Positions 5,750 through 54,802 of a stretch of DNA of 64,000 nucleotides are shown piece after piece. Each line of letters begins with the position of its first letter. Positions within the stretch are counted from its first letter, which is position 1. A program made the translations under genes and the position numbers. The notes below the pieces were generated by a model. The model ran no database searches. It worked only from the letters and a program-made list of their open reading frames with translations, and was not told the origin of the DNA. This DNA is from Mycolicibacterium rufum (GTDB taxonomy: Bacteria; Actinomycetota; Actinomycetes; Mycobacteriales; Mycobacteriaceae): NCBI RefSeq assembly GCF_022374875.2, contig NZ_CP092427.2:3968001-4032000 (forward strand). The letters are read 5' to 3'.

Positions 5750-6526
5750 CTAGGTGTTCCAGTCGGCCAGCACGTTGACGAACGGCGTGGGCTGCACCGA
5801 CAGTGCGCCGACATAGGGATGCTCGAGCGCGAAGATCAGATACATCACGAACGCCAGCAGCGACGCCGTCAACCCGACGGCGAGGCCGTGCACCAGCAGG
5901 TCCCGCGTACCGAACAGGTAGGTGAACACCATCAGCACGGCGCCGCCGCCGATGAGCAGCACCCACAGTTCGCCGGGCACCGAGGCGTCGCCCGTCGACA
6001 CCCGAAGCTTGCGGTTGGCGCTCAGATCGTTGAGCCGCACGATCGCGTGGTCGAAGAATGCGATCTCGTTGCGCGTCTCGGGCTGGACCTTGAGGTAGGC
6101 CTGCCAGACGTTGTTCAGCGCATCGGACTGTTCGGCGATCGTCTCGCCGTGCCGCATCCGCGGGAACTCGTTGTCGATGACGTCGCGGGAGTAGGCGACG
6201 AGGTTCTGCTGCACATCGGTGCGGTACGCCGACGGCAGCGCGGCGGAGTCGCGCAACAGATCGGCGACGGCCGAGGCCTCCATGCTGCTCGCGTCCTCGG
6301 CGTTGCCGAACTGCTCCCACACCACCACGACGACGAACGCGACCAACACCGCGTAGAGCACACCGGCGACCTGAAAGACCGCGCTGGACACCGGATTCGC
6401 CGATTCCAGCCGGGTGTGCGAGACCACCTTGCGGAACAGCACGAGGCCGCCGACGGAGATCCCGACGACGACCGCGATCCAGATCAGGCCGAGGACGGGG
6501 GCAGGGAACTGCAGCAGCCAGAGCAC
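5750..6526 (-). CDS. DUF4239 membrane protein
   Basis: 258 residues with GTG start. Two N-terminal membrane segments (about residues 10-30 and 50-70), a soluble helical middle (about 75-180), then two more membrane segments near 185-235. This is the DUF4239 pattern (bestrophin-like topology has been suggested for the family). No catalytic motif. It converges with fprB (6 bases apart). Confidence 0.75.
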   Translation of the reverse strand: MLWLLQFPAPVLGLIWIAVVVGISVGGLVLFRKVVSHTRLESANPVSSAVFQVAGVLYAVLVAFVVVVVWEQFGNAEDASSMEASAVADLLRDSAALPSAYRTDVQQNLVAYSRDVIDNEFPRMRHGETIAEQSDALNNVWQAYLKVQPETRNEIAFFDHAIVRLNDLSANRKLRVSTGDASVPGELWVLLIGGGAVLMVFTYLFGTRDLLVHGLAVGLTASLLAFVMYLIFALEHPYVGALSVQPTPFVNVLADWNT

Positions 6527-6581
6527 AGCCCAGTATCAACCGGCCTGAGGCCGGCGCCCGGCAAACACACCGGCGGGCGGG

Positions 6582-7034
6582 TCAACTCCCGCTGCTCATC
6601 TGGGCCGCGATGTCGTTGACGTCGACCTCGCGCACCGATTCGGCCAGCGCCCAGTGGTGACCGAACGGGTCGCGCACCACGCCGTAGCGGTCGCCCCAGA
6701 ACTGGTCTTCGAGCGGGTTGACCACTTCGGCGCCCGCATCGAGCGCGCGCTGGAAGCGGCCGTCGACGTCGGCGCCGTGCAGGTGCAGCGTGACGGGCGT
6801 GCCGCGGAGCGCCGTGGGGGTGCTGGACACGCCGTCGTTGTATTCGGGGAAGTCGTCGTTGAGGAACACCATCGAGCCGTTGATCCGCATGCACGCGTGC
6901 ATCAGCTTGCCGTCGGGCCCGGGCAGACGCACCATCTCCTCGGCGCCGAAAGCCTTGATGTAGAAGTCCAGCGCCGCGGCCGCATCGTCGACGACGAGGT
7001 GCGGAACCAGCATCGGGGTGTTGTCGATCGCCAT
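6582..7034 (-). CDS. VOC/glyoxalase-fold protein (Rv0887c-like)
   Basis: 150 residues with the paired beta-alpha-beta modules of the vicinal oxygen chelate fold. The segment VPHLVVDDAAAALDFYIKAFGAEE is typical, and VRDPFGHHWALAESVREV is the usual C-terminal end of the PhnB-like subgroup. Substrate unknown. The start at 7034 has AAGGAGA upstream and begins at the domain; an ATG 23 codons earlier gives an unlikely Arg/Pro-rich leader. Synteny points to Rv0887c. Confidence 0.88.
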   Translation of the reverse strand: MAIDNTPMLVPHLVVDDAAAALDFYIKAFGAEEMVRLPGPDGKLMHACMRINGSMVFLNDDFPEYNDGVSSTPTALRGTPVTLHLHGADVDGRFQRALDAGAEVVNPLEDQFWGDRYGVVRDPFGHHWALAESVREVDVNDIAAQMSSGS

Positions 7035-7110
7035 GGGGTCTCCTTCGCTGCGTGATGGCCGGGGTGGCTGTCGATGCTGACCCGGCCGCCACTGGAAACT
7101 CATCGGCGCG

Positions 7111-7725
7111 TCAGACCACCGAGAAGTCCGGGGGCAGCGCGCTTCGTCCGGTCAGCGCCATCAGCAGCGCGGGTCCGCGGTCCAGGTGCACCCCGATGCG
7201 GGCGGCCAGCGCGGCGGCGTCGGCCAGCACCTCCCGGGGCGGGTTGCCCGGTACGCCGAGCGCCGCGGCAATGTCGAGGCCGTGCACGGCGATCTCGAAG
7301 GTCCGCGTCGGCAGATAGGTGCTCAACCGCAGGCCAAGGCCGCCGATCACCTCGATGAGCGGGTCTCCGGCGGCGTCGATCTCGCCGAGCACGCGATCGA
7401 CGAGGCCGTCGATCGTCGCAGCGGGGTCCGGCCCGAGGTCGCGGCCTGCCTGGCGGCCGCGCTCGACGATCGCGGCGGCGCCCATGACGGCGGCGTAGTC
7501 CTTGATACGGACGTAGTAGTCGGCGGGCTCGGTGACGTCCTCGCGTGCCGCGGGTGCCGTCAGGTAGGTGCTCACCGTGATCAGTGAGCGTGAGGTGTGC
7601 CCGACCAGATCGCGAACCGACCACTCGCCCAGCCCGGGATCGTCCCAGCGGTGCGCGGGCACATCCCGCGCCAGAGCCGCGAAATACCGTGCGGCCGAAG
7701 CGAAGATGGTCCGCGGATCGGTCAT
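7111..7725 (-). CDS. Mycothiol-dependent maleylpyruvate isomerase/DinB-like protein
   Basis: 204 residues with the N-terminal metal-binding four-helix DinB/MDMPI fold: WSVRDLVGHTSRSLITV supplies one His and RTFEIAVHGLDIAAALG the other typical His. Members may be mycothiol S-transferases or isomerases; the substrate cannot be predicted. The ATG overlaps the citA stop (ATGA), so it is coupled to citA. Confidence 0.8.
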   Translation of the reverse strand: MTDPRTIFASAARYFAALARDVPAHRWDDPGLGEWSVRDLVGHTSRSLITVSTYLTAPAAREDVTEPADYYVRIKDYAAVMGAAAIVERGRQAGRDLGPDPAATIDGLVDRVLGEIDAAGDPLIEVIGGLGLRLSTYLPTRTFEIAVHGLDIAAALGVPGNPPREVLADAAALAARIGVHLDRGPALLMALTGRSALPPDFSVV

Positions 7726-8840
7726 CGTCGGGCCAGCTGGTCCCAGCCCTCGACCGACTCGGGGCTACGCGGCGCGGGGCCGACGTAGATCGCCGACGGC
7801 CGCACCAGCTTCCCCAGCCGCTTCTGCTCGAGGATGTGGGCGCACCAGCCGGCCGTGCGCCCACAGGTGAACATCGCGGGCATCATCGTCGGAGGCACCT
7901 GCGCGAAGTCGAGGATGACCGCCGCCCAGAACTCGACGTTGGTCTCGATCGCGCGGTCGGGCCGGCGTTCCCGCAGCTCGGCCAGGGCCGCCTGCTCGAG
8001 CGCGGCGGCGACCTCGAAGCGCGGCGCCTCGAGCCGCTTGGCGGTGGCCCGCAGCACCCGGGCCCGCGGATCCTCGGCGCGGTACACCCGGTGCCCGAAG
8101 CCCATCAGCTTCTCGTTGCGGTCCAGGATGCCGCGCACCACCGCGCGCGCGTCCCCGGTCCGCTCGGCCTCCTCGATCATCGGGATGACCCGCGCGGGCG
8201 CACCGCCGTGCAGCGGGCCGCTCATCGCGCCGATCGCGCCCGATAGGGCGGCCGCCACGTCGGCGCCCGTCGACGCGATCACCCGGGCGGTGAACGTCGA
8301 GGCGTTCATGCCGTGCTCGGCGGCGCTGACCCAGTACGCGTCGATGGCCTCGATGTGCCGCGGATCGGGGTCGCCCTGCCAGCGGGTCATGAATCGTGCT
8401 GTGACCGTGTCGCATTCGTCGACCCTGCGCTGCGGCACAGCGGGCTGATAGATGCCGCGGGCGGATTGGGCGACGTAGGACAGTGCCATCACCGAGGCCC
8501 GGGCCAGTTGGTCGCGCGCGGTCTGGTCGTCGATGTCCAGCAGCGGTGGGTAGCCCCAGATCGGCGCCAGCATCGCCAGCCCGGCTTGCACGTCGACGCG
8601 GACGTCGCCGCTGTGGATCGGCAGCGGGAACGGCTCGGCGGGCGGCAGACCCTGCCCGAACCGCCCGTCGACCAGCAGGCCCCACACGTCCCCGAAGGTG
8701 ACCCGATCGGCGACCAGGTCCTCGATGTCGACGCCGCGATAGCGCAGCGCGCCGCCGTCCTTGTCCGGCTCGGCGATCTCGGTTTCGAACGCCACCACCC
8801 CGGCCAGCCCGGGAGCGAAATCCTTCGGCACCGCTGTCAT
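7722..8840 (-). CDS. citA: Citrate synthase paralogue CitA
   Basis: 372 residues, close to Rv0889c CitA. Catalytic His motifs SGPLHGGAPARV and GFGHRVYRAEDPRARVL are present. At the third catalytic position, Asp in NVDFYSG/NVDYYTG of canonical enzymes, this protein has Glu303 (NVEFWAAVIL), so activity or specificity (2-methylcitrate versus citrate) may differ. The start MTAVPKDFAPGLAGVVAFET was chosen because residues upstream do not resemble a citrate synthase. Divergent from pdxH. Confidence 0.9.
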   Translation of the reverse strand: MTAVPKDFAPGLAGVVAFETEIAEPDKDGGALRYRGVDIEDLVADRVTFGDVWGLLVDGRFGQGLPPAEPFPLPIHSGDVRVDVQAGLAMLAPIWGYPPLLDIDDQTARDQLARASVMALSYVAQSARGIYQPAVPQRRVDECDTVTARFMTRWQGDPDPRHIEAIDAYWVSAAEHGMNASTFTARVIASTGADVAAALSGAIGAMSGPLHGGAPARVIPMIEEAERTGDARAVVRGILDRNEKLMGFGHRVYRAEDPRARVLRATAKRLEAPRFEVAAALEQAALAELRERRPDRAIETNVEFWAAVILDFAQVPPTMMPAMFTCGRTAGWCAHILEQKRLGKLVRPSAIYVGPAPRSPESVEGWDQLARR

Positions 8841-8895
8841 GCGGTGATTGTCGCACCACGCCTCGTCGCCGCCGCCGACAGTCGCGCTTCGGGCG

Positions 8896-8901
8896 TAGCG
8901 T
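8896..8901 (+). promoter_or_regulatory. Putative -10 for a leaderless pdxH transcript
   Basis: TAGCGT fits the mycobacterial TANNNT -10 pattern and ends 6 bases before the pdxH GTG, the spacing expected when transcription starts at the first base of the start codon. No clear -35 is seen. Confidence 0.45.
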
Positions 8902-8907
8902 GATCGC

Positions 8908-9564
8908 GTGGCTACCTCTGACGACCTCGCGCGGATGCGGGTGGAATACGGCTCGGTGGAGAAGGACGGCAGCTCCGACCTCGATGTGGACTGGCTCGAC
9001 GTCGGCTGGGTCGCGCTGCTGAACACCTGGTTGCGCGAGGCCGGGGAGGCCGGGGTGGCCGAGCCCAACGCGATGGTGGTCGGCACCGTGGACGCCGAGG
9101 GAAGACCCGTCACGCGGACGGTGTTGTGCAAGAGCGTGACCGAGTCGGGCATCACCTTCTACACCAACTACGCCTCCGCCAAGGGCGAGCACCTGGCCGC
9201 CACCCCCTACGCGTCGGTGACCTTTCCCTGGTTCGCGATGAGCCGTCAGGTCCATCTGCGCGGACCCGTGACCAAGGTCCCGGCCGCCGAGACCGCCGAC
9301 TACTGGGCCAAGCGGCCGCGCGGCTCCCAGCTCGGAGCGTGGGCGTCGGCGCAGAGCCAGCCGATCGCCTCGCGGGAGGCGCTGCGCGCCCAACTGGCCG
9401 AGGTGACCGAGCGATTCGCCGACAGCGAGACCGTCCCGGTCCCGCCGCACTGGGGCGGCTACCTGATCGCGCCCGACGAGGTCGAGTTCTGGCAGGGCCG
9501 GGAGAACCGGCTACACAACAGGATTCGGGTGCGCGGCGGATCCGTCGAGCGCCTCCAGCCGTAG
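8908..9564 (+). CDS. pdxH: Pyridoxamine/pyridoxine 5'-phosphate oxidase PdxH
   Basis: 218 residues, standard PdxH length. It oxidises PNP/PMP to pyridoxal phosphate with FMN and O2. Family motifs: [20 protein letters not shown] (FMN binding), [37 protein letters not shown], and the C-terminal [19 protein letters not shown] substrate-binding end. GTG start with a -10 hexamer directly upstream. It lies between citA and the MFS gene, which overlaps its stop (TAGTG). Confidence 0.95.
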
Positions 9565-10835
9565 TGGGGCGGCTCTTCGCCGACACCACACCCCTGCAGG
9601 CCCCCGACTTCCGGCGGTTGTGGCTGGCCGGGATCGTCACCGTGATCGGCGCGAACCTGACGATCTTCGCCGTCCCCGTCCAGCTCTACGCGCTCACCCA
9701 GAACTCGCTCTACGTCGGGCTGGCCGGGCTCTTCGCCCTGGTGCCGCTGGTGGTGTTCGGGCTGTGGGGCGGCGCCTGGGCCGACGCGATGGACCGGCGC
9801 CTGCTGCTCGTGATCACCTCGTGCGGGCTGGCGCTGTCCTCGGTGCTGCTGTGGCTGCAGTCGGCGCTGGGGCTGAACAACGTGTGGGTGGTGCTCAGCA
9901 TGCTCTCGGTGCAGCAGGCCTTCTACGCGGTGAACTCACCGACCCGCTCGGCGGCCATCCCCCGCATGCTGCCCGGCGGTCAGCTGCCCGCCGCGAACGC
10001 GCTGAACATGACCGTGATGCAGTTCGGGGCGATCGCCGGCCCGCTGCTGGCCGGGGTGATGCTGCGCTGGGTGGACCTGTCGGCGCTGTACCTCATCGAC
10101 GCGATCACCTGCCTGGCCGCGATCTGGGCGACTGTGCGGATGACCCCGATGCCGCCCACCGCGACCGGTGACAACGCCCCCGGCTACGGGCTGGCCGCGG
10201 TGTTCGACGGGTTCCGCTATCTGGCCGGCAATCGGGTGGTGCTGATGTCCTTCGTCGTCGACCTGATCGCGATGATCTTCGGCATGCCGCGGGCGCTATT
10301 CCCGCAGATGGCCCACGAGAGCTTCGGCGGTCCCGTCGAGGGCGGGACGACGATGGCGCTACTCGCCGCGGCGATGTCGGCCGGCGCGGTGGCCGGCGGC
10401 ATCTTCTCCGGCTGGCTGCCCCGGGTGCAGCGGCAGGGGTTGGCGGTCGTGGTGGCGATCGTCGCGTGGGGTCTCGCGATGGTCGGCTTCGGTGTCGCCA
10501 GTGGCGCGGCGCACGGGACCGCGGGCACGATGCTGTGGATCGCGCTGGCGTGCCTGGCCTTCGGCGGTGCCGCTGACATGGTGTCCGCGGCGTTCCGGTC
10601 GACGATCCTGCAGGAGGCGGCGTCCGACGAGTTGCGCGGACGGTTGCAGGGGGTGTTCACGGTCGTGGTCGCCGGCGGGCCCCGATTGGCCGACGCCGCG
10701 CACGGGGCGGTGGCCGCCGCGGTCGGAACGACGGTCGCGGCGGCCGGCGGCGGTGTGCTCGTCGTCGTCGGCGTGGTGCTCGCCGTGCTGGCCGTGCCCG
10801 CCTTCGTTCGCTACCGGGTGGCGCGGGTGCCCTGA
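9564..10835 (+). CDS. MFS exporter (EntS/MFS_3 type)
   Basis: 423 residues with about 12 hydrophobic segments. It has the N-terminal FRRLWLAGIVTVIGANLTIFAVPVQ helix and the loop GGAWADAMDRRLLL of the MFS_3/EntS-like efflux family. The GTG start shares a base with the pdxH stop (TAGTG). Upstream in-frame sequence overlaps pdxH and is not protein-like. Probably exports a small molecule; a TetR regulator follows and may control it. Confidence 0.85.
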   Translation: MGRLFADTTPLQAPDFRRLWLAGIVTVIGANLTIFAVPVQLYALTQNSLYVGLAGLFALVPLVVFGLWGGAWADAMDRRLLLVITSCGLALSSVLLWLQSALGLNNVWVVLSMLSVQQAFYAVNSPTRSAAIPRMLPGGQLPAANALNMTVMQFGAIAGPLLAGVMLRWVDLSALYLIDAITCLAAIWATVRMTPMPPTATGDNAPGYGLAAVFDGFRYLAGNRVVLMSFVVDLIAMIFGMPRALFPQMAHESFGGPVEGGTTMALLAAAMSAGAVAGGIFSGWLPRVQRQGLAVVVAIVAWGLAMVGFGVASGAAHGTAGTMLWIALACLAFGGAADMVSAAFRSTILQEAASDELRGRLQGVFTVVVAGGPRLADAAHGAVAAAVGTTVAAAGGGVLVVVGVVLAVLAVPAFVRYRVARVP

Positions 10836-10911
10836 TCGGGGGCCCTGGCAACGGTCGGGCGATGCCGGTTCCGCCCTCGTCGGGCGCCCCGACGGATTAC
10901 CATCCACCAGC

Positions 10912-11562
10912 GTGGACGAAGTCAGGGCGGAGCCCGTCCTCGGGTTGCGGGAGCGCAAGAAGCGCCGCACCCGCGCCACCCTGATCGACGCCGCGGTGGC
11001 CCTGTGCGAGAGCCAGGGCTTCGACGGCACGACCGTCGACCAGATCGCTGCGATCGCCGACGTCTCGCCCCGCACCTTCAGCCGCTACTTCAACACCAAG
11101 GACGCGATCGCGCTCGCGCTGATCGACGAGGTGCTCGACCGCGTGGCCGCCGAGTTGGCGGTCCAGCCGCCCGAGCTGTGCCACTTCGAGTCGCTGCGGC
11201 GCGCCTACATCGCGATGGCGCGGAACACGACCGCTGCGCAGGCCAGTGCGTTGTCGTCGGAACGGTTCATGCAGATCCTGCGGATCGTGATGTCGTCGGG
11301 CACCTTGCAGCAGGCGGCCATCGAGTTCCGGGGCAACCCGGTCGACGTCGCCGTCGCCGCCCGGATGGGCACCGCTGTCGATGATCGCCGGGTCAAGCTC
11401 GTCGCCGCGGTGTTCAACGGCATCCTGATGACGGCCCTGCGGGAGTTCGCACAATCGGTGCCGGGGCTCGTCGGTGTCGGCGTGGACGAGGCGATCGCCA
11501 CCTTCGAGTCGGTCTACGCCGACTTCATGGTTGAGATCGCGGGTCTCGGGCAACCCGTGTGA
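10912..11562 (+). CDS. TetR-family transcriptional regulator
   Basis: 216 residues. HTH in residues about 20-65 (RATLIDAAVALCESQGFDGTTVDQIAAIADVSPRTFSRYFNTKDAIALAL), with the typical T-V-D-Q-I-A...S-x-R-T-F-x-R-Y-F pattern. The remainder is an all-helical ligand/dimerisation domain. GTG start. The gene lies 76 bases downstream of the MFS exporter, a likely target, and upstream of gltA2. Ligand unknown. Confidence 0.88.
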   Translation: MDEVRAEPVLGLRERKKRRTRATLIDAAVALCESQGFDGTTVDQIAAIADVSPRTFSRYFNTKDAIALALIDEVLDRVAAELAVQPPELCHFESLRRAYIAMARNTTAAQASALSSERFMQILRIVMSSGTLQQAAIEFRGNPVDVAVAARMGTAVDDRRVKLVAAVFNGILMTALREFAQSVPGLVGVGVDEAIATFESVYADFMVEIAGLGQPV

Positions 11563-11598
11563 GGCCGCTGTCAGCGACCCCCGCGGGGCGTGCACACC

Positions 11599-11637
11599 GG
11601 AATGGGACTACCTTCTGTAGTCAGACTCCGCCATTCC
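11599..11637 (+). promoter_or_regulatory. Nested inverted repeats upstream of gltA2
   Basis: Outer arms GGAATGG (11599-11605) and CCATTCC (11631-11637) enclose a perfect hairpin GACTAC-CTTCT-GTAGTC (11606-11622). The element ends 31 bases before the gltA2 GTG. It may be an operator or a structured 5' leader. TGTAGT inside the hairpin also resembles a -10, so it could overlap the promoter. Confidence 0.5.
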
Positions 11638-11668
11638 CGATAGACCCGAGAACACCGAAGGGAACCCA

Positions 11669-12973
<1,305 letters not shown>

Positions 12974-45687: not shown

Positions 45688-45735
45688 CTTCTTCGCCGTC
45701 GGTGCGCCGGATCCGCCAGCGCTTGCAGGGGACAG

Positions 45736-45760
45736 TACCGTACCGTACCGTTTCGTTCCG
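45736..45760. promoter_or_regulatory. Pentamer repeat in the tetR/mmpS divergent region
   Basis: TACCG occurs three times in tandem (45736-45750), followed by TTTCG and TTCCG. Located 49 bases from the tetR start and 51 from mmpS; a plausible TetR binding region. Confidence 0.45.
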
Positions 45761-45810
45761 GCCGCCTGCCGGCGTGCCGGCTGTCGGGGCGATCGGAAGT
45801 GGGCTCGCGG

Positions 45811-46257
45811 ATGAGCAGGGTGTCGGTCGGAAGCGTGGTCAGGCGGCGGTGGACGGTGATCGTCACCGTGGTCGTCGTCGCGATCGTCGCGTTCAGCGTC
45901 TACCGCCTGCACGGCATCTTCGGCTCCACCAACACCGTGTCGCGGCCCAGTGCGGACACCCTGGAGAACACCGGCTACAACCCCAAGCGCGTGCTGTTCG
46001 AGGTGTTCGGCTCGCCCGGCACCGTAGCGACGATCAACTACCTCGACGCGAACGCTCAGCCCCAGCGGGCCGACGACGTCACGCTGCCGTGGTCGACGAC
46101 GTTGACCACCGACGACCCCACCCTGTTCGCCGACCTGCGCGCGCAGGGCGACGGCGCCCAGATCGGCTGCCGCATCACGGTCAACGGCATCGTCAAGGAC
46201 GAGAGGACCACGGACAACGTGAACGGATACATCTCGTGCCTGGACAAGTCCGCATGA
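45811..46257 (+). CDS. MmpS-family periplasmic accessory protein
   Basis: 148 residues. One membrane helix (about 14-35, [23 protein letters not shown]) followed by the MmpS beta-sandwich domain ([62 protein letters not shown]-terminal Cys). Partners with MmpL in lipid/siderophore export or azole-type efflux. ATG 45811 preferred; GTG 45799 would add four residues. Overlaps mmpL by 4 bp (ATGA). Confidence 0.92.
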
Positions 46258-49121
46258 GTGAGCACCGCGTCGACGGCGAACCGTCGCGGGTCGCGCACCT
46301 GATCCGGGTGCTGTGCGTGCCCATCCTGCTGGTGTGGGTGGCCGTCGCCGCGTTGACCAACATCGCCGCGCCGCAGCTCGAGGTCGTCGGCGCGGAACGC
46401 TCGGTGTCGATGAACGCCGCCGATTCGCCGTCGATCAAGGCGATGCGCCACATCGGCCAGACCTTCCAGGAGTTCGACTCCGACAGTGCGGCCATGATCG
46501 TGCTCGAGGGGGACCAGCCGCTGGGCGCCGACGCGCACCGCTACTACGACACCCTGGTCAAGCGGCTCGGCCAGGACACCACCCACGTTCAGCACATTCA
46601 GGACTTCTGGGGCGATCCGCTGACAGCGGGCGGTTCGCAGAGCAAGGACGGCAAGGCCGCGCTGGTGCAGGTCTACCTCGCCGGCAACCAGGGTGAGGCG
46701 CTGGCCAACGAGTCCGTCGACGCCGTTCGCGCCATCGTCGCCGAGGTGCCGCCGCCCCCGGGCGTCAAGGCCTACGTCACCGGCGCGGCACCGCTGATCA
46801 CCGACAACTTCCAAGTGGGCAGCGCGGGCACGCACAAGGTCACCGCCATCACGTTCCTCGTCATCGCGGTGATGCTGCTCATCGTCTACCGGTCGGTGGT
46901 GACGATGCTGATCGTGCTGGTGGCCGTAGCCATCGAGCTGGCAGCCGCGCGCGGGGTCGTCGCGGTGCTGGCGAACTCGGGGTTGATCGGCCTGTCCACC
47001 TACTCGACCAACCTGCTGACGCTGCTCGCCATCGCCGCAGGCACCGACTGGGCGATCTTCCTCGTCGGCCGCTACCACGAGGCACGCGGCGCCGGTGAGG
47101 ACCGAAAAGTCGCATATGACACCATGTTCCGGGGCACCGTCCACGTGATCGTCGGTTCCGGACTGACGATCGCCGGCGCGGTCGCCTGCCTGTACTTCAC
47201 CCGGCTGCCCTACTTCCAGACGCTCGGCGTGCCCGCGGCGATCGGAGTGCTGGTGACGCTGGCGGCCGCGCTCACGCTGGGTCCGGCGGTCATCGTGATG
47301 GCAGGCCGGTTCGGGTTGATGGAGCCCAAACGGGCGATGCGGACCCGGGGGTGGCGGCGCATCGGCACCGTGATCGTGCGCTGGCCCGGGCCGATCCTGG
47401 TGGTGACGTGCGCGATCGCCCTGATCGGATTGTTGGCGCTGCCCGGCTACAAAACGAGTTACGACGCGCGACCGTACCTGCCCGACACTGCCCCGGCCGT
47501 CGTCGGTTACGCCGCGGCCGAACGGCACTTCTCCGAGGCCCGGCTCAACCCCGAACTGCTGATGATCGAGACCGATCACGACATGCGCAACCCGGCGGAC
47601 ATGCTGATCCTCGAGCGCGTCGCCAAGGCCGTGTTGCACACCCCGGGTGTGGCGCTCGTGCAGTCGATCACGCGCCCGCTCGGCACACCGATCAAGCACA
47701 GCTCCATCCCCTTCCAGATCAGTGCGCAGAGTGCCAGCCAGATCATGAACCTGAGCTACCAGAAGGACCGCGCCGCCGACCTGATGAAGCAGGCAGCCGA
47801 GATCAGCAACACGATCGACATCCTCAAGCAGCAGCTCACCTTGCAGCAGGCCAGCGCGGCCGCGACGCACGAGCAGACCCAGGCCTTCCACGACACCGTC
47901 ACGATCGTCACCGACCTGCGCGACAAGCTCGCGAACTTCGACGACCAGTTCCGTCCGCTGCGCAACTACTTCTATTGGGAGCCACACTGTTTCGACATCC
48001 CGATGTGCGCGGCACTGCGATCGGTTTTCGATTCGCTCGACGGCATCAGTGCGCTCAGCGATCAGTTCACCAGCATCACGGCCAGCCTCGACAAGCTCGA
48101 CGCGCTGCAACCGCAACTGCTGGCGCTGCTGCCGCCGCAGATCGCCATTCAGGAGCGCAACCGCGACCTGACGCTGTCGAACTACGCGACCACCGGCGGC
48201 ACCAACGCGCAGAGCGAGGAGGCGCTGCGCAACGCGACGGCGATGGGACAGGCGTTCGACACCGCCAAGAACGATGACTCGTTCTATCTGCCGCCCGAGG
48301 CGTTCGACAACCCGGACTTCAAGCGCGGTCTGAAGCTGTTCCTCTCACCCGACGGCAAGGCCGCCAGGATGATCATCACCCACCAGGGCAATCCCGCGAC
48401 GCCCGAGGGCATCTCGCACATCGACGCGATCCGCGACTCCGCGTTCGACGCGATCAAGGCCACGCCCCTGTCGGACGCGAAGATCTACGTGGCGGGGGTC
48501 GCCGCCACGTACAAGGACGTCCAGGACGGCGCCAAGTACGACCTGCTGATCGTCGCGCTCGCCGCACTCGCGCTCATCCTGCTGATCATGATGTTCATCA
48601 CCCGCAGCCTGGTCGCGGCCGCCGTCATCGTCGGCACCGTGGTGCTCTCGCTCGGTGCGTCGTTCGGATTGTCGGTCCTGGTGTGGCAGTACATCTTCGG
48701 CATCCAGCTGTACTGGATCGTGCTGGCGCTGGCGGTGATCCTGCTGCTCGCCGTCGGCGCCGACTACAACCTGCTGCTGATCTCACGATTCAAAGAGGAG
48801 GTCGGAGCGGGTCTGAAGACCGGCAGCATCCGCGCGATGGCCGGCACCGGCGGGGTGGTCACCGCCGCCGGGCTGGTGTTCGCGGCCACGATGTCGTCGT
48901 TCATCTTCAGCGACCTGGTGGTGCTCGGCCAGATCGGCACCACCATCGGGTTGGGCCTGCTGTTCGACACCCTGATCGTGCGGTCCTTCATGACCCCGTC
49001 GATCGCGGTCCTGCTCGGCCGCTGGTTCTGGTGGCCGCAGATCGTGCGGACCCGACCGGCCAGTCAGATGCTGCGGCCCTACGGTCCGCGGAGGGCGGTG
49101 CGCGACCTGCTCGGCGGGTGA
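46254..49121 (+). CDS. MmpL-family RND transporter
   Basis: 955 residues, MmpL4/5-like length. Membrane helix 1 (about 22-42), periplasmic porter domain, helices 2-6 (about 200-345), and a second porter domain with a long helical hairpin insertion (about 520-650, [21 protein letters not shown]), characteristic of MmpL4/5-type proteins. Helices 8-12 end near 930. Proton-relay positions: Asp837-Tyr838 is standard, but the first pair is Asp265-Trp266 where Asp-Tyr is usual. Exports lipids, siderophores or drugs with MmpS. Confidence 0.93.
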
Positions 49122-49147: not shown

Positions 49148-49175
49148 GAAACACGGCGGAAACATGATCGCCGCG
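49148..49175. promoter_or_regulatory. GlnR-like box upstream of amt
   Basis: GAAAC-ACGGCG-GAAAC (49148-49163) has the two half-sites with N6 spacing of actinobacterial GlnR boxes. A third GAAAC is at 49171-49175. It lies 70-100 bases before the amt start, consistent with activation under nitrogen limitation. Confidence 0.6.
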
Positions 49176-49246
49176 TGCCCGAAACGCGGACCCGACATCC
49201 TCGGTCGGAACCGACTCCCCGGTTCACGACGGAAGGAGTGCCGACC

Positions 49247-50578
49247 GTGAACCAGCTCGATCCCGCCGCGACCGCATGGCTGTTGGCCAGCACCGCCCTG
49301 GTGCTCCTGATGACGCCGGGCCTCGCGATCTTCTACGGCGGCATGGTGCGCACCACCGGTGTGCTGAACATGATCATGATGAGCTTCATCGCGATCCCGC
49401 TGGTGACCGTGACGTGGCTGCTGCTCGGGTACAGCCTCGCGTTCTCCGGCTCGGGGGCGGGCGGGGTGATCGGCGATCTGGCGCACGCCGGATTGAGCGG
49501 TACCGCGCCGGACACGCTGCACGGACAGGTGCCGGAGCTGTTGTTCGTGACGTTCCAGCTCAGCTTCGCGATCATCACCGCGGCCCTGGTGAGCGGCGCG
49601 ATCGCCGACCGGGCCAAGTTCGCGGCGTGGGTGCTCTTCATCCCGGTGTGGGTCGTCGTGGTGTATGCCGTTGTGGCGCACTGGGTGTGGGCGCCCGGCG
49701 GATGGATGTTCCGGTGGGGTGTGCTCGATTACGCGGGCGGGCTGGTCGTCGAGATCGTCTCCGGTGCCTCGGCTCTGGCGCTGGCCCTGGTCCTCGGTCC
49801 GCGGATCGGCTTCAAGAAGGAGGCCATGCGCCCGCACAACCTGCCCTTCGTGCTGCTCGGTGTCGGGTTGCTGTGGTTCGGTTGGTTCGGGTTCAACGCC
49901 GGGTCGGCGCTGGCGGCCAACGGCACCGCGGCGGCGATCTTCCTCAACACGCTGGTGGCCGGCTGTCTGGGCATGCTGGGCTGGCTGGCGGTCGAGCGGC
50001 TGCGGGACGGGAAGCCGACCACGTTCGGCGCCGCCTCGGGCGTGGTGGCCGGGCTGGTGGCGATCACCCCGTCCTGCGGCACCGTCAACACTCTCGGCGC
50101 CGTCGTGGTCGGCCTGGTGGCCGGCGTGGTGTGCGCCTTCGCGATCGGCCTGAAATTCCGGTTCGGGTATGACGATTCGCTCGACGTCGTCGGCGTGCAC
50201 TTTGTCGGCGGCGTGGTCGGCGTGCTGCTCATCGGTCTGCTCGCCACCGACGTGATGACCGGCGGCGCCAACGGGCTGTTCTACGGCGGTGGGCTGGCCC
50301 AGCTCGGCAGGCAATCGGTGGCGGTGCTGGTGGTCGCCGCGTATGCGTTCGCGGCATCGTTCGTGATCGCCACGCTGATCGACCGGCTGATCGGCTTCCG
50401 GATCAGCGCCGAGGACGAGGTGTCGGGTGTCGACTTCTCCCAGCACGCCGAAACCGCCTACGCCGAGGGCGTTCACGGGCACGGGGCGCCGCCACGGTCG
50501 GGTCTGTTCGGGTCGGCCGGCGCGACGGCGCCGCGGCCCGCGGCAAACGACGATCGGCCCGCCGCACCCCCGGCCTGA
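49247..50578 (+). CDS. amt: Ammonium transporter AmtB
   Basis: 443 residues, 11 membrane helices. Amt signature segments: LLMTPGLAIFYGGMVR, VWVVVVYAVVAHWVWAPGGWM (pore His region), DYAGGLVVEIVSGASALALAL, WFGWFGFNAGSALAANG, ITPSCGTVNTLGAVVVG and DVVGVHFVGGVVG (second pore His). The C-terminal tail (FRISAEDEVSGVDFSQHAETAYAEG) is the standard PII-binding region, followed by an Ala/Pro-rich extension. GTG start with GGAAGGAG upstream. No glnK/glnD follows. Confidence 0.94.
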   Translation: MNQLDPAATAWLLASTALVLLMTPGLAIFYGGMVRTTGVLNMIMMSFIAIPLVTVTWLLLGYSLAFSGSGAGGVIGDLAHAGLSGTAPDTLHGQVPELLFVTFQLSFAIITAALVSGAIADRAKFAAWVLFIPVWVVVVYAVVAHWVWAPGGWMFRWGVLDYAGGLVVEIVSGASALALALVLGPRIGFKKEAMRPHNLPFVLLGVGLLWFGWFGFNAGSALAANGTAAAIFLNTLVAGCLGMLGWLAVERLRDGKPTTFGAASGVVAGLVAITPSCGTVNTLGAVVVGLVAGVVCAFAIGLKFRFGYDDSLDVVGVHFVGGVVGVLLIGLLATDVMTGGANGLFYGGGLAQLGRQSVAVLVVAAYAFAASFVIATLIDRLIGFRISAEDEVSGVDFSQHAETAYAEGVHGHGAPPRSGLFGSAGATAPRPAANDDRPAAPPA

Positions 50579-50759: not shown

Positions 50760-51659
50760 TTGACCGATCTGGCAACGTCGGTGGACGTGGACACCAGCCG
50801 AGCCATGCTGCGCCACATGCTCGTGGCGCGCGGCATCGACGACGAAGCCGTCCGCTTGCAGAATCAGGGCCGCGTCGATCTGTGGCTGTCGTGCCGCGGG
50901 CAGGAAGCGGCGCAGGTCGCCTCGGCGATGGCCATCGGGGACGCGGCGACGATCTTCCCCAGTTACCGGGACCACGCCGTCGCGGTCGTGCGCGGTATCG
51001 ACGGGGTGGCCCTGGTCGCGCAGTGGGCCGGCCGGACCTTCTGCGGGTGGAATCCGCGCAGACACCGGTTCTTCCCGTACACCCTCGTGGTCGCGGCGCA
51101 GACCCTGCACGCCGTCGGGTACGCCCTCGGACGCCGGCTGCAGGACCGCACCGAGACGGTCGTGGTGTACCTCGGCGACGGCGCCACCAGCGAGGGGGAT
51201 GTCTCGGAGGCGATGAACCTGGCCGCGGTCGAGTCGGCGCCGGTGCTGTTCGTGGTCCAGAACAACGGCTGGGCGATCTCCAAACCCAGTCACGAACAGA
51301 TGCGGACGTCGATCGCCACCCGCGCGCGCGGGTTCGGCATCACCGCCTGGTCGGTGACCGACGACGACCCCGACGACACCTACCGGCAGTGCCTGACGGC
51401 GCGCCGGCACGTCGAGAGCACCGGCACGCCCGCGCTGATCGAGCTGCACACCACCCGCACCGCGGGGCACAGCAGCTCCGACGCGCACACCGTCTACCGC
51501 GATCGCGAGGAGCTGGCCGCCGCGGCGTCGCGCGACCCGGTGGCGCGCTACCGGCAGCGGCTGCACGCCGCGGGTCTGGTCGACGAGCCGTGGCTCGACG
51601 ACGTCGCGCGGGACGTCGCGGCGCAGAGCCGGGCGATGGTGGAGGCCTACGGGCGATGA
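50760..51659 (+). CDS. Thiamine-diphosphate dehydrogenase E1 alpha subunit
   Basis: 299 residues from TTG; ATG at 50805 (MLRHMLVARGIDD) is an alternative. E1 alpha fold: MLRHMLVARGIDDEAVRLQNQG, then the ThDP motif GDGATSEGDVSEAMNLAAVESAPVLFVVQNNGWAIS (GDG...NN). Short for the family. With E1 beta it forms a decarboxylating heterotetramer acting on a 2-oxo acid or, as in some natural product pathways, an acyloin/ketose. ATGA overlap with the beta gene. A 181-bp upstream region may hold the promoter (TACAGT at 50637 is only a weak candidate). Confidence 0.88.
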   Translation: MTDLATSVDVDTSRAMLRHMLVARGIDDEAVRLQNQGRVDLWLSCRGQEAAQVASAMAIGDAATIFPSYRDHAVAVVRGIDGVALVAQWAGRTFCGWNPRRHRFFPYTLVVAAQTLHAVGYALGRRLQDRTETVVVYLGDGATSEGDVSEAMNLAAVESAPVLFVVQNNGWAISKPSHEQMRTSIATRARGFGITAWSVTDDDPDDTYRQCLTARRHVESTGTPALIELHTTRTAGHSSSDAHTVYRDREELAAAASRDPVARYRQRLHAAGLVDEPWLDDVARDVAAQSRAMVEAYGR

Positions 51660-52636
51660 CCATGACGCGGCCGCAGTGCCTGGCCGAATCCCTCAACGAC
51701 GCGCTGCGCGGGCTGATGGACGACGACGCGTCCGTCGTGCTGATCGGACAGGATATCGGCCGTCTCGGTGGGGTGTTCCGCGTGACCAGGGGCCTGCAGG
51801 AGCGTTTCGGCCCCGGCCGGGTCCGTGATGCGGTGCTGGCCGAGTCGTCGATCGTCGGACAGGCGATCGGCATGTCGATCGCGGGGCTCAAACCCATCTG
51901 CGAGATCCAGTTCGACGGCTTCGTCTACCTGGCGATGAACCAGATCGTCACGCAGGCCGCCAGGATGCCGGCCCGGTGGAACGGCGAGCTCGATCTGCAT
52001 CTGGTGGTCCGGGTTCCGGTGGGCGGAGGCATCCGCGCGGTCGAGCACCACAGCGAGTCCAACGAGGCGCTGTTCGCCCACACCCCGGGTCTGCACGTCG
52101 CCTACCCGTCGGACCCCGGGGACGCGGCCGCCATGCTCGAACAGGCCTGCCGTCTCGGGTCGCCGGTCGTCTTCTTCGAACCCAAGCGGCTGTACTGGAA
52201 CCGCAGGCGCCGGGCGCGTCTCGACGTGGAGCCGGCCTCGCCCTTCGGGGCGCGGGTCGCGCGCCACGGAAGTCACATCACCGTCGCCGGATACGGCGCG
52301 GTCCTCGAGGACGTGCTCGAGGCGGCCGACGCGCTCGCCGGCACCGTCGACGTCGAGGTGGTCGACCTGCGCTGGATCGCGCCGATGGACGTCGACACGG
52401 TGATCGCCTCCGTCGCCCGCACCCGCCGCCTGCTCGTGGTGCACGAGGCGGTCGGATTCTGCGGTGTCGGAGCCGAATTGGCCGCCACCGTCTCCGAACG
52501 CGCGTGGCATCACCTCAGCGGGCCGGTGCGTCGGCTGGCTCCGCGGCGCGCCACCTATCCGCCCGCCGACCGGGAGAACGACCATCTGATCGGGCCAGCG
52601 GAGATCATCCACGCGATCGAGGAGATGTGCGGGTGA
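51656..52636 (+). CDS. Thiamine-diphosphate dehydrogenase E1 beta subunit
   Basis: 326 residues. Transketolase pyrimidine domain (LAESLNDALRGLMDDDASVVLIGQDIGRLGGVFRVT, AESSIVGQAIGMSIAGLKPICEIQF with the E1 beta Glu), VRVPVGGGIRAVEHHSESNEALFAHTPGLHVAYPSDP, and C-terminal domain with DLRWIAPMDVDTVIASVARTRRLLVVHEAVGFCGVG. Typical of pyruvate/acetoin/branched-chain E1 beta. Its stop overlaps the lipoyl gene (GTGA). Substrate not predictable. Confidence 0.92.
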   Translation: MTMTRPQCLAESLNDALRGLMDDDASVVLIGQDIGRLGGVFRVTRGLQERFGPGRVRDAVLAESSIVGQAIGMSIAGLKPICEIQFDGFVYLAMNQIVTQAARMPARWNGELDLHLVVRVPVGGGIRAVEHHSESNEALFAHTPGLHVAYPSDPGDAAAMLEQACRLGSPVVFFEPKRLYWNRRRRARLDVEPASPFGARVARHGSHITVAGYGAVLEDVLEAADALAGTVDVEVVDLRWIAPMDVDTVIASVARTRRLLVVHEAVGFCGVGAELAATVSERAWHHLSGPVRRLAPRRATYPPADRENDHLIGPAEIIHAIEEMCG

Positions 52637-52890
52637 GCGCCGCGGAGAACAGCATCGACATCCATGTGCCCGACTTCGGCCATGGCCTCACCGACGCCCT
52701 CGTGGTCGAATGGCTGGTGTCGGTCGGCGATGTCGTCGAACGCGGGGACGTGGTCGCCGTGCTCGAGACGGACAAGAGCAGCGTCGACCTGATGGCCGAG
52801 AGGGCAGGCACGGTGGTGGAGATCGTCGTGGGCGCGCGGTCGATCACGACGTCAGGTTCGGTGTTGTACAAGCTCGACGAGCGACGGTGA
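52633..52890 (+). CDS. Free-standing lipoyl domain protein
   Basis: 85 residues only: a complete lipoyl/biotinyl beta barrel IDIHVPDFGHGLTDALVVEWLVSVGDVVERGDVVAVLETDKSSVDLMAE with the modified Lys48 in ETDKSSVD, and GSVLYKLDE as the last strand. It lacks the peripheral-subunit-binding and acyltransferase domains of E2. It probably accepts the hydroxyalkyl/acyl group from the E1 pair as a dithiolane adduct. GTG start overlaps E1 beta; the ACP gene follows 13 bases later. Confidence 0.9.
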   Translation: MSAAENSIDIHVPDFGHGLTDALVVEWLVSVGDVVERGDVVAVLETDKSSVDLMAERAGTVVEIVVGARSITTSGSVLYKLDERR

Positions 52891-52903
52891 AAGGTCGGAG
52901 ACG

Positions 52904-53152
52904 ATGGCATCCATCGATGAACGAATGAACACGATCATGCTCAAGATCGTGCGGCGGCGATCTCCCGAGGCGGGCGTGGAGGATTTCGGCACCGCGATCT
53001 GGGATCTCGATCTGGATTCGCTCGACGTCGCCGAACTCACCGAGCTGCTGGAGAAGGAGTTCGGTGTCGAGGCGGACCTCGAGCGGCTCGACGAGTGTGT
53101 CAGCCCCGCCGACATCAAGACGTACTTCCTGGGACTGATCGGCACTCCGTGA
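52904..53152 (+). CDS. Acyl carrier protein
   Basis: 82 residues. Helix 2 motif DLDLDSLDVAELTELLEKEFGVEAD with Ser39, the expected 4'-phosphopantetheine site (DSL). Start ATG 52904; a Met at residue 8 or 12 is less likely. Lies between the lipoyl and KAS III genes and overlaps the latter (GTGA), implying it receives the acyl group from the lipoyl domain and presents it to the synthase. Confidence 0.9.
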   Translation: MASIDERMNTIMLKIVRRRSPEAGVEDFGTAIWDLDLDSLDVAELTELLEKEFGVEADLERLDECVSPADIKTYFLGLIGTP

Positions 53153-54084
53153 ACGCCGGCATCGTCGACATCGTCACGGAGACAAGCGGAGAACACGTCC
53201 CCAACGCGTACTTCGACGGCATCGGTCTGACCGACGAGTGGATCCGCCGCCGCACGGGGGTGGGCGCGCGCTGGTGGATGGACGACTCCGAGCCTCTCGA
53301 CGAGGTGGCCGCGCGGGTGTGCGCCCCGCTGGTCGCCCGCCACGGTGAGGGCAGGATCTCCGCGCTGCTGGTGGTCAGCAGCTCCGCGGGCGGCGCCGTG
53401 CCCGGCATCGCGCAGCGCGTGGCGACGAAAGCCGGATTGCCCAACGACATCCTGGCTTTCGACATGTCCGCGGCCTGCAGTGGGTTCATCTACGGGCTCA
53501 TCTCGGGACTGTCGCTGTGCGAGGCCGGCGACGGCGCCGGGGTGATCGTGTGCTGTGTCGAGGCGATGTCGCGCATGCTGGACAAGACCGATCGCAACAC
53601 CGGGCCACTGTTCGGGGACGGCGCCGCGGCCGTGCTGCTCGAGCCTCGGTCCGGCTTCCGCAAGCACCGTTGGCATGCCGGATCGGACGGCGCCGGTGCC
53701 GACTTGATGCGCGGACAGATCGGCCAGGGCATCGCACTCGACGGCATCCGGGTCTACCACCGCGCGGTGCGCACGATGACCGAGACGGCGAAGATCCTGC
53801 AGGAGAACGACGTCGAGCCCTCGATCGTGATCGGTCATCAGGCCAACTCGCGGATCCTGCAACGGGTGCGCGACGAGGCCGACATCGGCTCGGCGGTGTT
53901 CGTGGACTGCGTCGAGAATTTCGGCAACACCTCGGCGGCCTCGATCCCGCTGGCGTTGGGCGCCTCGTTGGCCGAAGGCACGATTCCGGCGAGCGGCCGC
54001 GCGCTGCTCGTCGCCTACGGCGCGGGCGAGGCGTGGGGCGGTGTGATGGTCGACTACGACCTCACCGACACCCCGCATGGGTGA
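53149..54084 (+). CDS. Ketoacyl-ACP synthase III (FabH-like)
   Basis: 311 residues, thiolase fold. Triad by position: Cys110 in DMSAACSGFIYGL, His230 in IGHQANSRILQRV, Asn260 in ENFGNTSAASIPLAL. GDGAAAVLLEP and GAGEAWGGVMV are typical ends of FabH. It condenses an acyl starter with an ACP-bound extender; here the ACP of the cassette is the obvious partner. Housekeeping FabH is not in this genomic setting in mycobacteria, so this is a specialised paralogue. It overlaps ACP (4 bp) and the SDR (8 bp). Confidence 0.92.
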   Translation: MNAGIVDIVTETSGEHVPNAYFDGIGLTDEWIRRRTGVGARWWMDDSEPLDEVAARVCAPLVARHGEGRISALLVVSSSAGGAVPGIAQRVATKAGLPNDILAFDMSAACSGFIYGLISGLSLCEAGDGAGVIVCCVEAMSRMLDKTDRNTGPLFGDGAAAVLLEPRSGFRKHRWHAGSDGAGADLMRGQIGQGIALDGIRVYHRAVRTMTETAKILQENDVEPSIVIGHQANSRILQRVRDEADIGSAVFVDCVENFGNTSAASIPLALGASLAEGTIPASGRALLVAYGAGEAWGGVMVDYDLTDTPHG

Positions 54085-54802
54085 CCGGCCCCAGGTCGTC
54101 CTGATCACCGGCGCCTCCCGCGGCGTCGGCGCCGAGGTGGCCCGCGGTCTGGCGCGTCCGGGCCGGCACATCGTCGTCAACTACCGGGAGAAGGAGCGCC
54201 GGGCCGCCGAGGTCGTCGACGGCCTCCGCGCCGCGGGTGCCGGCGCGTCGGCAACGCGCGCGGACCTGTGCGACGAGGCCGCCGTCGCGGCGATGTTCGA
54301 TGACATCGATCGGCGATTCGGGGCCCTGGATGTCCTGGTGCTCAACGCCTCCGGCGGTCTGGAGCGCCATGCCGGCCCGGGCTACGCGATGCGGCTCAAC
54401 CGCGACGCGCAGGTGGCGGTGGCCCGGCGGGCGGTGGCGCTGATGAACGACGGTGGTCTGGTCGTCTTCGTCACGAGTCACCCGGCGCACTTCTTCGGGC
54501 GGGTGCCGGTGCCGATCGCCGGCTACGAACCCGTGGCGGAGAGCAAGCACGCCGGCGAGCAGGCGCTGCGCGCCGAACTGCATGCCGAAGGTGTTCGCCT
54601 GGTGGTGGTTTCGGGGGATCTGCTGGAGGGCAGCGTCATGGTGCGGCTGCTGGAGCGCGCTGACCGCGACGGTGTCGCGGCGCGGCGCGCGGCCGGACTG
54701 CCGAGCGTCGCTGAGTTCGCCTCCGCGATCGTCGCGGCGGTCGACGCCCCGCCTCCGCACGGCACCACCGTCTGTGTCGGCGGAGCCGGCTACGGAGACT
54801 GA
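54077..54802 (+). CDS. Atypical short-chain dehydrogenase of the KAS III cassette
   Basis: 241 residues, SDR fold: NADP motif ITGASRGVGAEVARGL, NAS in VLNASGG, Ser in FVTSHPAHFF. The expected Y-x3-K is instead Tyr150-x6-Lys157 in YEPVAESKHAGE, a variant of FabG-like SDRs that may change or abolish reduction. Probably acts on the beta-ketoacyl product made by the KAS III. Overlaps the KAS III gene by 8 bp; last gene of the six. Confidence 0.88.
   Translation: MGDRPQVVLITGASRGVGAEVARGLARPGRHIVVNYREKERRAAEVVDGLRAAGAGASATRADLCDEAAVAAMFDDIDRRFGALDVLVLNASGGLERHAGPGYAMRLNRDAQVAVARRAVALMNDGGLVVFVTSHPAHFFGRVPVPIAGYEPVAESKHAGEQALRAELHAEGVRLVVVSGDLLEGSVMVRLLERADRDGVAARRAAGLPSVAEFASAIVAAVDAPPPHGTTVCVGGAGYGD

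What the first reader, a model, noticed from the sequence alone, without database searches (positions are those of the whole stretch)
50760..54802. Self-contained E1-lipoyl-ACP-KAS III-SDR cassette without E2 or E3
Six genes with 4-bp or longer overlaps, or a 13-base gap, encode E1 alpha, E1 beta, an 85-residue lipoyl domain (Lys48), an ACP (Ser39), a KAS III with intact Cys110-His230-Asn260, and an SDR with a Tyr-x6-Lys active site. No E2 catalytic domain and no dihydrolipoamide dehydrogenase is nearby. The order suggests decarboxylation of a 2-oxo acid or acyloin, transfer of the two-carbon or longer unit to lipoyl, then to ACP, then condensation and reduction. A precedent for E1/E2-like loading of a carrier protein exists in naphthyridinomycin-type biosynthesis (NapB/NapD), but I know of no mycobacterial system like this. 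The product could be an acyloin- or hydroxyketide-type small molecule.
Basis: partly seen in the sequence, partly recalled or inferred. Interest (0 to 1): 0.82.

Follow-up and report, generated by a model that had tools for sequence, protein, structure and literature searches.

The report
Six-gene lipoyl-to-ketosynthase acyl cassette
A compact six-gene set, found in a few mycobacteria at several unrelated genome sites, looks able to strip carbon dioxide from a keto acid and hand the remaining acyl group to its own carrier protein through a chain-building enzyme instead of the usual transfer enzyme; it is a new variation on a theme known from antibiotic biosynthesis.

Summary
In detail: window 50760-54802 encodes E1 alpha, E1 beta, an 85-aa lipoyl protein, an ACP, a KAS III with intact Cys-His-Asn and an SDR in one operon. 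It is a conserved, portable unit: 12 mycobacterial genomes carry the same six genes in order, with four unrelated upstream flanks; dN/dS is at most 0.30 for each gene in four pairs. Eight cousins in Streptomyces and Micromonospora carry the first five genes plus an MDR reductase, seven of them beside NRPS or PKS domains. No E2 catalytic domain lies beside 20 of 20 cassettes; six of nine independent control loci have one. Absence of a linked E3 says nothing: the controls lack it too. E1-lipoyl-carrier loading is known (NapBCDE, QncLMN, SclQ, pepteridine). New are the missing E2 acyltransferase and the reductase slot. Best reading: a 2-oxo acid is decarboxylated onto lipoyl, KAS III takes the acyl group and condenses it with malonyl-ACP, and the reductase finishes it. 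Anatomy is shown; substrate, acyl path and product are inferred. New variant of a known kind.

The parts
50760..51659 (+). E1 alpha subunit (ThDP-binding half), 299 aa; loop His237 conserved
   Evidence: PF00676 198 bits; TIGR03181 284 bits, below its equivalog cut-off of 411; 119 of 119 aligned relatives keep His237, Trp42 and Tyr69 (two of 121 left out as short)
51656..52636 (+). E1 beta subunit, 326 aa
   Evidence: PF02779 and PF02780; best solved relatives are PDH and BCKDH beta subunits
52633..52890 (+). Free-standing lipoyl domain, 85 aa; lipoyl-lysine motif ETDKS, Lys48 at 52774-52776
   Evidence: PF00364 62.7 bits; best NCBIfam matches, below cut-off, are lipoyl domains of E2 proteins; 82-91 aa in the 12 further cassettes measured
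52904..53152 (+). Acyl carrier protein, 82 aa; phosphopantetheine Ser39 at 53018-53020
   Evidence: PF00550 34.4 bits
53149..54084 (+). KAS III (FabH-like), 311 aa; Cys110 53476-53478, His230 53836-53838, Asn260 53926-53928
   Evidence: PF08545 and PF08541; PRK09352 208 bits, below its cut-off of 249; catalytic residues conserved in relatives
54077..54802 (+). SDR reductase, 241 aa, PRK07806 subfamily; Tyr150 54524-54526, x6, Lys157 54545-54547
   Evidence: NF005868 281 bits over cut-off 162; B. subtilis FabL is first by sequence and by fold (3oid, TM 0.80, 27% identity; model mean pLDDT 86)

Best explanation
A self-contained acyl-ACP-making module. E1 alpha/beta decarboxylates a 2-oxo acid with ThDP and reductively acylates the free lipoyl protein, which works as a soluble shuttle (as the glycine-cleavage H protein does) rather than as a domain of an E2 core. 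KAS III takes the acyl group from the dihydrolipoyl arm onto its Cys and condenses it with malonyl carried by the cassette's own ACP. The reductase (SDR in mycobacteria, MDR in Streptomyces and Micromonospora) reduces the ACP-bound product, possibly at C=C after host dehydration steps. The host supplies lipoylation, phosphopantetheine, malonyl transfer and lipoamide dehydrogenase for re-oxidation. In Streptomyces and Micromonospora the acyl-ACP probably feeds a neighbouring NRPS/PKS; in mycobacteria it feeds an unlinked acceptor. Shown: gene content, order, conserved catalytic residues, several insertion sites, selection, no linked E2, constant reductase slot. Inferred: the acyl group, the direct lipoyl-to-KAS transfer, the condensation, the host's part and the product.
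For: Six genes with intact catalytic residues in one overlapping operon. The same unit in 12 mycobacterial genomes with four unrelated groups of upstream flanks. Purifying selection on all six genes in four pairs (dN/dS at most 0.30). No E2 catalytic domain in the stretches held for 20 of 20 cassettes, against 6 of 9 independent control loci. Reductase slot filled in 20 of 20: SDR in 12, MDR in 8. The nine cassettes put in the trees form one clade for each E1 subunit (E1 alpha 100/99, E1 beta 100/100), and cassette E1 beta groups with E1 beta of five ordinary actinobacterial loci at 87/86. Cys-His-Asn is the decarboxylative-condensation triad (family knowledge). Carrier priming from an alpha-keto acid by an E1 and an E2-carrier fusion, with E3 from the host, is proposed for pepteridine; E1-type glycolicacyl-ACP loading for scleric acid and quinocarcin.
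Against: No reaction is measured. The positions that hold CoA in FabH (recalled: Trp32, Arg36, Arg151, Arg249 in E. coli) are kept here (Trp31, Arg35, Arg149, Arg235, 118 of 118 rows), so KAS III may still use acyl-CoA. None of the six genes is a dehydratase, a ketoreductase of the usual Tyr-x3-Lys type, a malonyl transferase or a thioesterase. The host has four E2 catalytic domains elsewhere that could act in trans. KAS III was proposed as an acyl loader, not a condenser, for DinQ, the NapE homologue. The E1 alpha tree leaves the cassette's neighbours unresolved and 87/86 for E1 beta is moderate. One control E1 pair, L165, also has no linked E2, so a missing E2 is not unique to cassettes.
Confidence: 0.45

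Rival explanations
1. KAS III acts only as an acyltransferase: it moves the acyl group from lipoyl (replacing the E2 acyltransferase) to the ACP without condensation, and the reductase acts later or elsewhere, as proposed for DinQ.
For: DinQ, a KAS III homologous to NapE, is proposed to tether the unit to the DinT ACP in dnacin biosynthesis. The cassette brings its own ACP but no malonyl transferase.
Against: Asn260 and His230, needed for decarboxylative condensation, are kept in 117 and 118 of 118 rows, although a pure acyltransferase could lose them.
Confidence: 0.22
2. CoA-dependent supply: E1 loads the lipoyl protein, a host E2 in trans makes acyl-CoA, and KAS III uses the acyl-CoA as FabH does, giving a branched or short primer on a dedicated ACP.
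For: CoA-site residues are conserved and four E2 catalytic domains are encoded elsewhere in the genome.
Against: E2 has lipoyl domains of its own; if host E2 did the transfer, a private lipoyl protein kept in 20 of 20 cassettes would have little point.
Confidence: 0.18
3. Ketose route: E1 is a two-component transketolase of NapB/NapD or QncN/QncL type and delivers a glycolyl (C2) unit from a ketose phosphate to the ACP.
For: The gene set matches NapB/C/D/E and SclQ1-4 in kind.
Against: E1 matches dehydrogenase E1 subunits far better than split transketolases (best E 2e-39 against 3e-5 for alpha, 1e-71 against 5e-7 for beta), and E1 beta groups with those of ordinary loci. A glycolyl unit does not need a reductase. 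NapB/QncN sequences could not be fetched, and they are themselves dehydrogenase-like in annotation, so this is not excluded.
Confidence: 0.12
4. A decaying or misplaced set of dehydrogenase genes without a joint function.
For: Sparse: 11 of 248 genomes of the genus.
Against: dN/dS at most 0.30 for all six genes in four pairs, fixed order, short overlaps, several sites, active residues conserved.
Confidence: 0.03

Closest known systems
NapB/NapC/NapD/NapE and DinU/DinT/DinS/DinQ (naphthyridinomycin and dnacin; small hydroxyacyl unit onto ACP)
   Same: E1-like pair, small ACP and a KAS III working around a carrier protein (passages of PMC7570522).
   Different: The NapD-type protein is large (DinS 754 aa), the genes lie in an NRPS cluster, and the proposed source is a ketose phosphate. 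Ours has a separate 85-aa lipoyl protein, a reductase, and no NRPS or PKS domain beside the mycobacterial copies.
QncN/QncL/QncM and SclQ1-SclQ4 (quinocarcin, scleric acid; glycolicacyl-ACP)
   Same: ThDP protein, transketolase-type beta protein, lipoyl attachment domain, ACP (passages of PMC6335953).
   Different: QncL and SclQ4 carry an acyltransferase catalytic domain with the lipoyl domain; the cassette has none, and has KAS III and a reductase. In scleric acid a deletion of sclQ1-4 left residual product.
Pepteridine locus (plu2796: E2-like protein fused to carrier and condensation domains, with an E1-like partner)
   Same: Carrier protein proposed to be primed in place of CoA from an alpha-keto acid; E3 from the host (passages of PMC5384830).
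   Different: E2-like domain kept and fused to NRPS-like domains; the passages seen name no KAS III and no free lipoyl protein.
Branched-chain / pyruvate dehydrogenase complexes (E1-E1-E2)
   Same: E1 alpha 37-41% and E1 beta 45-50% identical to those of five ordinary actinobacterial loci, 31% and 38% for a sixth (L112).
   Different: No E2 catalytic domain; ACP, KAS III and reductase added.
Streptomyces locus L118 (KAS III-E1-E1-E2-ACP-KS)
   Same: KAS III, E1 pair, lipoyl, ACP in one cluster (names from sequence likeness, not scanned with Pfam).
   Different: E1 only 30-31% identical; E2 with catalytic domain kept.

Membership tests
2-oxo acid dehydrogenase complex | E1 alpha and beta with ThDP and loop His | tested here: met
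2-oxo acid dehydrogenase complex | E2 with catalytic acyltransferase domain (PF00198) in the set | tested here: not met
   0 of 20 cassettes; 6 of 9 independent control loci positive (misses: L107 3.8 kb, L143 cut at contig end, L165), plus the three loci that gave the queries; genome copies lie elsewhere
2-oxo acid dehydrogenase complex | E3 encoded with the set | tested here: inconclusive
   0 of 20 cassettes, but also 0 of 12 ordinary control loci; genome Lpd at G000:C1:2331531-2332913
NapBCDE / QncLMN / SclQ carrier-loading set | E1 pair plus lipoyl plus discrete ACP in one operon | tested here: met
NapBCDE / QncLMN / SclQ carrier-loading set | lipoyl domain with acyltransferase catalytic domain (QncL, SclQ4) | tested here: not met
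   lipoyl protein is 85 aa and nothing like E2 lies beside it
NapBCDE / QncLMN / SclQ carrier-loading set | ketose-derived C2 unit | not testable with these tools
   needs an enzyme assay; reference sequences not available here
NapBCDE / QncLMN / SclQ carrier-loading set | next to NRPS genes | tested here: inconclusive
   condensation or PKS-KS domain in the stretches of 7 of 8 Streptomyces/Micromonospora cassettes, 0 of 12 mycobacterial ones
KAS III (FabH) | Cys-His-Asn triad | tested here: met
KAS III (FabH) | acyl-CoA as donor | not testable with these tools
   CoA-site residues (recalled) are kept; donor unknown
SDR enoyl reductase (FabL type) | Tyr-x6-Lys (spacing recalled as the family's) | tested here: met
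SDR enoyl reductase (FabL type) | enoyl reduction | not testable with these tools
   only 27% identity to FabL

The most novel reading that the evidence does not exclude
A ketosynthase fed directly from a lipoyl arm: KAS III has taken the place of the E2 acyltransferase, so a 2-oxo acid enters carbon-carbon bond formation as acyl-dihydrolipoyl with no CoA thioester, in a portable six-gene module that moves between actinobacteria and swaps its final reductase.
Probability: 0.38. Interest if true: 0.75.

Novelty: new variant of a known kind. Interest (0 to 1): 0.56.

Why it matters
If right, it is a minimal route from a 2-oxo acid to an extended acyl-ACP that avoids CoA and the large E2 core, with soluble parts that could be rebuilt in vitro. 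It would show a third way of emptying an acyl-lipoyl arm, beside E2-to-CoA and E2-to-carrier. It marks a small-molecule or lipid building block of a few mycobacteria that has no neighbouring synthetase domain and that was not seen in the listings of nine searches of an open-access library, of which only the top rows were shown when many papers matched.

Tried and rejected
Class-wide KAS search at 1e-90: 2 of 394; a strict threshold with five candidates scored per genome, so not used as a prevalence. MDR structure: mean pLDDT 49, no fold search made. Profile of the MDR: weak hits to PKS enoyl-reductase (PpsC) and quinone oxidoreductases and to crotonyl-CoA reductase, suggestive only; Pfam ADH_zinc_N is over its cut-off for L004 and just under it for L002. 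Passages on KAS III starters in the mycoplanecin and bolagladin papers, and on carriers in the chalkophomycin and Synteruptor papers, show no E1/lipoyl module. Search for the two named strains: five papers listed, titles not on this cluster, none opened. Acyloin product: rejected for lack of any ligating step in the gene content. Biotin instead of lipoyl: rejected on the ETDKS motif (recalled as lipoyl type) and E2-type matches. Seven Streptomyces hits (L138-L144) and four mycobacterial hits (L155-L158) at 40-47% identity were looked at and left out of the cassette count: E1-E1 with, in 10 of 11, a lipoyl match behind (not L156, whose stretch is 3.8 kb), and no KAS or ACP match in the stretch held. 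L165 is an E1 pair with neither E2 nor cassette genes. G1137 has the same coordinates as L004's genome and was counted once.
Full report
What is there. Window 50760-54802 holds six genes on the + strand: E1 alpha, E1 beta, an 85-aa lipoyl protein, an ACP, a KAS III and an SDR, joined by overlaps of 4, 4, 4 and 8 bases and one gap of 13 bases. Pfam supports each identity; of the NCBIfam matches only that of the SDR passes its cut-off. Ten neighbouring frames were scanned: upstream an ammonium transporter and an MMPL transporter; downstream, on the other strand, a short unassigned frame, an SDR and an AMP-binding enzyme. None is an obvious partner. The only tRNA is at 997-1093.

It is a unit. 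The KAS III occurs in 11 of 248 genomes of the genus at 1e-60, and an E1 alpha at 69-100% identity in the same 11; four more of the 248 have an E1 alpha at 44-47% that belongs to ordinary loci. All six genes lie together in the 11. The order-wide scan (6 of 397 at 1e-76) added one more mycobacterial genome, G1238, also with all six. Of these 12 cassettes the upstream flanks fall into four groups without shared DNA (800 bp at E 1e-20 as the bar) and the downstream flanks into five. In seven of the ten relatives aligned, DNA similarity to the window ends at or very near the cassette edges (L097 has one further patch of 183 bp); in L092, L093 and L094 it runs on because they share the window's upstream site. 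So the set moves as a whole. Pairwise dN/dS of the window against four of the relatives is at most 0.30 for every gene; against the nearest relative the lowest values are those of the ACP, lipoyl and KAS genes. Nine of the 20 cassettes were put in E1 trees; they form one clade each, at 100/99 and 100/100.

Cousins. Around L002 (Streptomyces by its record title) 13 of 343 genomes of the same genus had an E1 alpha hit at 1e-66. Six of the 13 are E1a-E1b-lipoyl-ACP-KAS followed by an MDR-type reductase in place of the SDR; the other seven are ordinary E1-E1 loci. Two Micromonospora genomes (L004 by title, L164 by genus label) have the MDR form too; their ACPs are too distant for the window's ACP to find but match PF00550. 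Thus 12 of 12 mycobacterial cassettes end in an SDR (in L101 partly masked) and 8 of 8 others in an MDR. Two unrelated reductase families in the same place argue for a needed NAD(P)H reduction. A condensation or PKS-KS domain is in the stretch of 7 of the 8 non-mycobacterial cassettes (not L134) and of 0 of 12 mycobacterial ones. Pfam shows NRPS or PKS domains in L002, L004, L137 and L164 and an adenylation domain in L135.

No E2. tblastn with three E2 catalytic domains finds none in the stretches of 20 of 20 cassettes (17.5-64 kb each). Of nine control E1 loci that did not give the queries, six have one; the three misses are L107 (3.8 kb held), L143 (contig end) and L165 (a full stretch, so an E1 pair without a linked E2 does occur otherwise). 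The genome has four E2 catalytic domains and one lipoamide dehydrogenase above cut-off, all outside the window, and 11 biotin/lipoyl domains including this one. By family knowledge the nearest functional likeness of a free lipoyl protein is the glycine-cleavage H protein.

Which acyl group. Solved relatives of the E1 pair are pyruvate and branched-chain dehydrogenases; split transketolases come far behind. In the E1 beta tree the cassettes group with E1 beta of five actinobacterial loci of ordinary E1-E1-lipoyl type at 87/86, moderate support; the E1 alpha tree leaves this open. The motif EHHSES is shared with three of those five. This points to a 2-oxo acid, perhaps branched. It is inference; the trees have 18 rows and lack NapB/QncN, which could not be fetched.

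KAS III. Cys110 and His230 are kept in 118 of 118 rows and Asn260 in 117, so decarboxylative condensation is possible. Residues that hold CoA in FabH (recalled positions) are kept too, which speaks against a strictly CoA-free route; this is the main evidence against my favoured mechanism.

SDR. The Tyr-x6-Lys spacing (recalled as the enoyl-reductase spacing) and FabL as first hit by sequence and by fold (model mean pLDDT 86) suggest an enoyl reductase, but identity is 27%, ketoreductases follow closely in the fold list, and the subfamily model is named only SDR oxidoreductase. The MDR shows weak likeness to crotonyl-CoA reductase and PKS enoyl reductases. Both slots leaning to C=C reduction is suggestive, not shown.

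Known kinds. In the dnacin and naphthyridinomycin clusters an E1-like pair, an ACP and a KAS III are proposed to put a small hydroxyacyl unit on the ACP (passages of PMC7570522). In scleric acid and quinocarcin the lipoyl domain comes with an acyltransferase domain (passages of PMC6335953). In pepteridine an E1 and an E2-carrier fusion are proposed to prime a carrier in place of CoA, with host E3 (passages of PMC5384830). The original NapB/NapD paper is not held and was not read. Nine literature searches on the module or its precedents listed no description of this cassette; only top rows were seen where many papers matched, and subscription papers are mostly absent from the library.

Verdict. 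The finding is real and stronger than stated as to conservation and mobility, less new than stated as to kind. It works like the Nap/Qnc/Scl loading sets but fails one defining feature of Qnc and Scl, the E2-type acyltransferase, so it is filed as a new variant. The bold reading, a ketosynthase that empties a lipoyl arm, is open and testable.

Noticed in passing
L120 (G000:C1:1815000-1826500), ORF 5971-6234 (-): In the same genome an E1-E1-E2 locus has an 87-aa ACP-like frame beside it, with an alcohol-dehydrogenase-like and a sensor-like frame (judged from the sequence, not scanned): perhaps a second E1/E2-to-ACP locus.
   Followed up: no
L118 (G616:C54:1030000-1048000), 6291-12113 (+): A Streptomyces cluster KAS III-E1-E1-E2 (with catalytic domain)-ACP-KS, E1 only 30-31% identical: an E2-keeping cousin.
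   Followed up: partly
window 49175-50578 and 45702-49121: Ammonium transporter and MMPL transporter upstream; upstream DNA is shared only by relatives at the same site, so these are not part of the cassette.
   Followed up: yes
L002, L133, L135, L137: These Streptomyces cassettes sit by an NRPS set with a stand-alone adenylation domain, a small carrier protein and, in L002, L133 and L137, a FAD oxidoreductase of 395 aa; product unknown (frames of L133 judged from sequence only).
   Followed up: partly
L003 211-1158 (+): A Propionibacteriaceae contig has an ACP (33%) and a KAS III (45% identical) at its cut end, with no SDR, MDR or E2 match in its 4.6 kb.
   Followed up: partly
L165 (G1114:C2:4575500-4595400), 8366-10446 (-): An E1 pair (49% and 47% identical to the cassette's) with no linked lipoyl, E2, ACP or KAS III match: an orphan E1 pair.
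   Followed up: no
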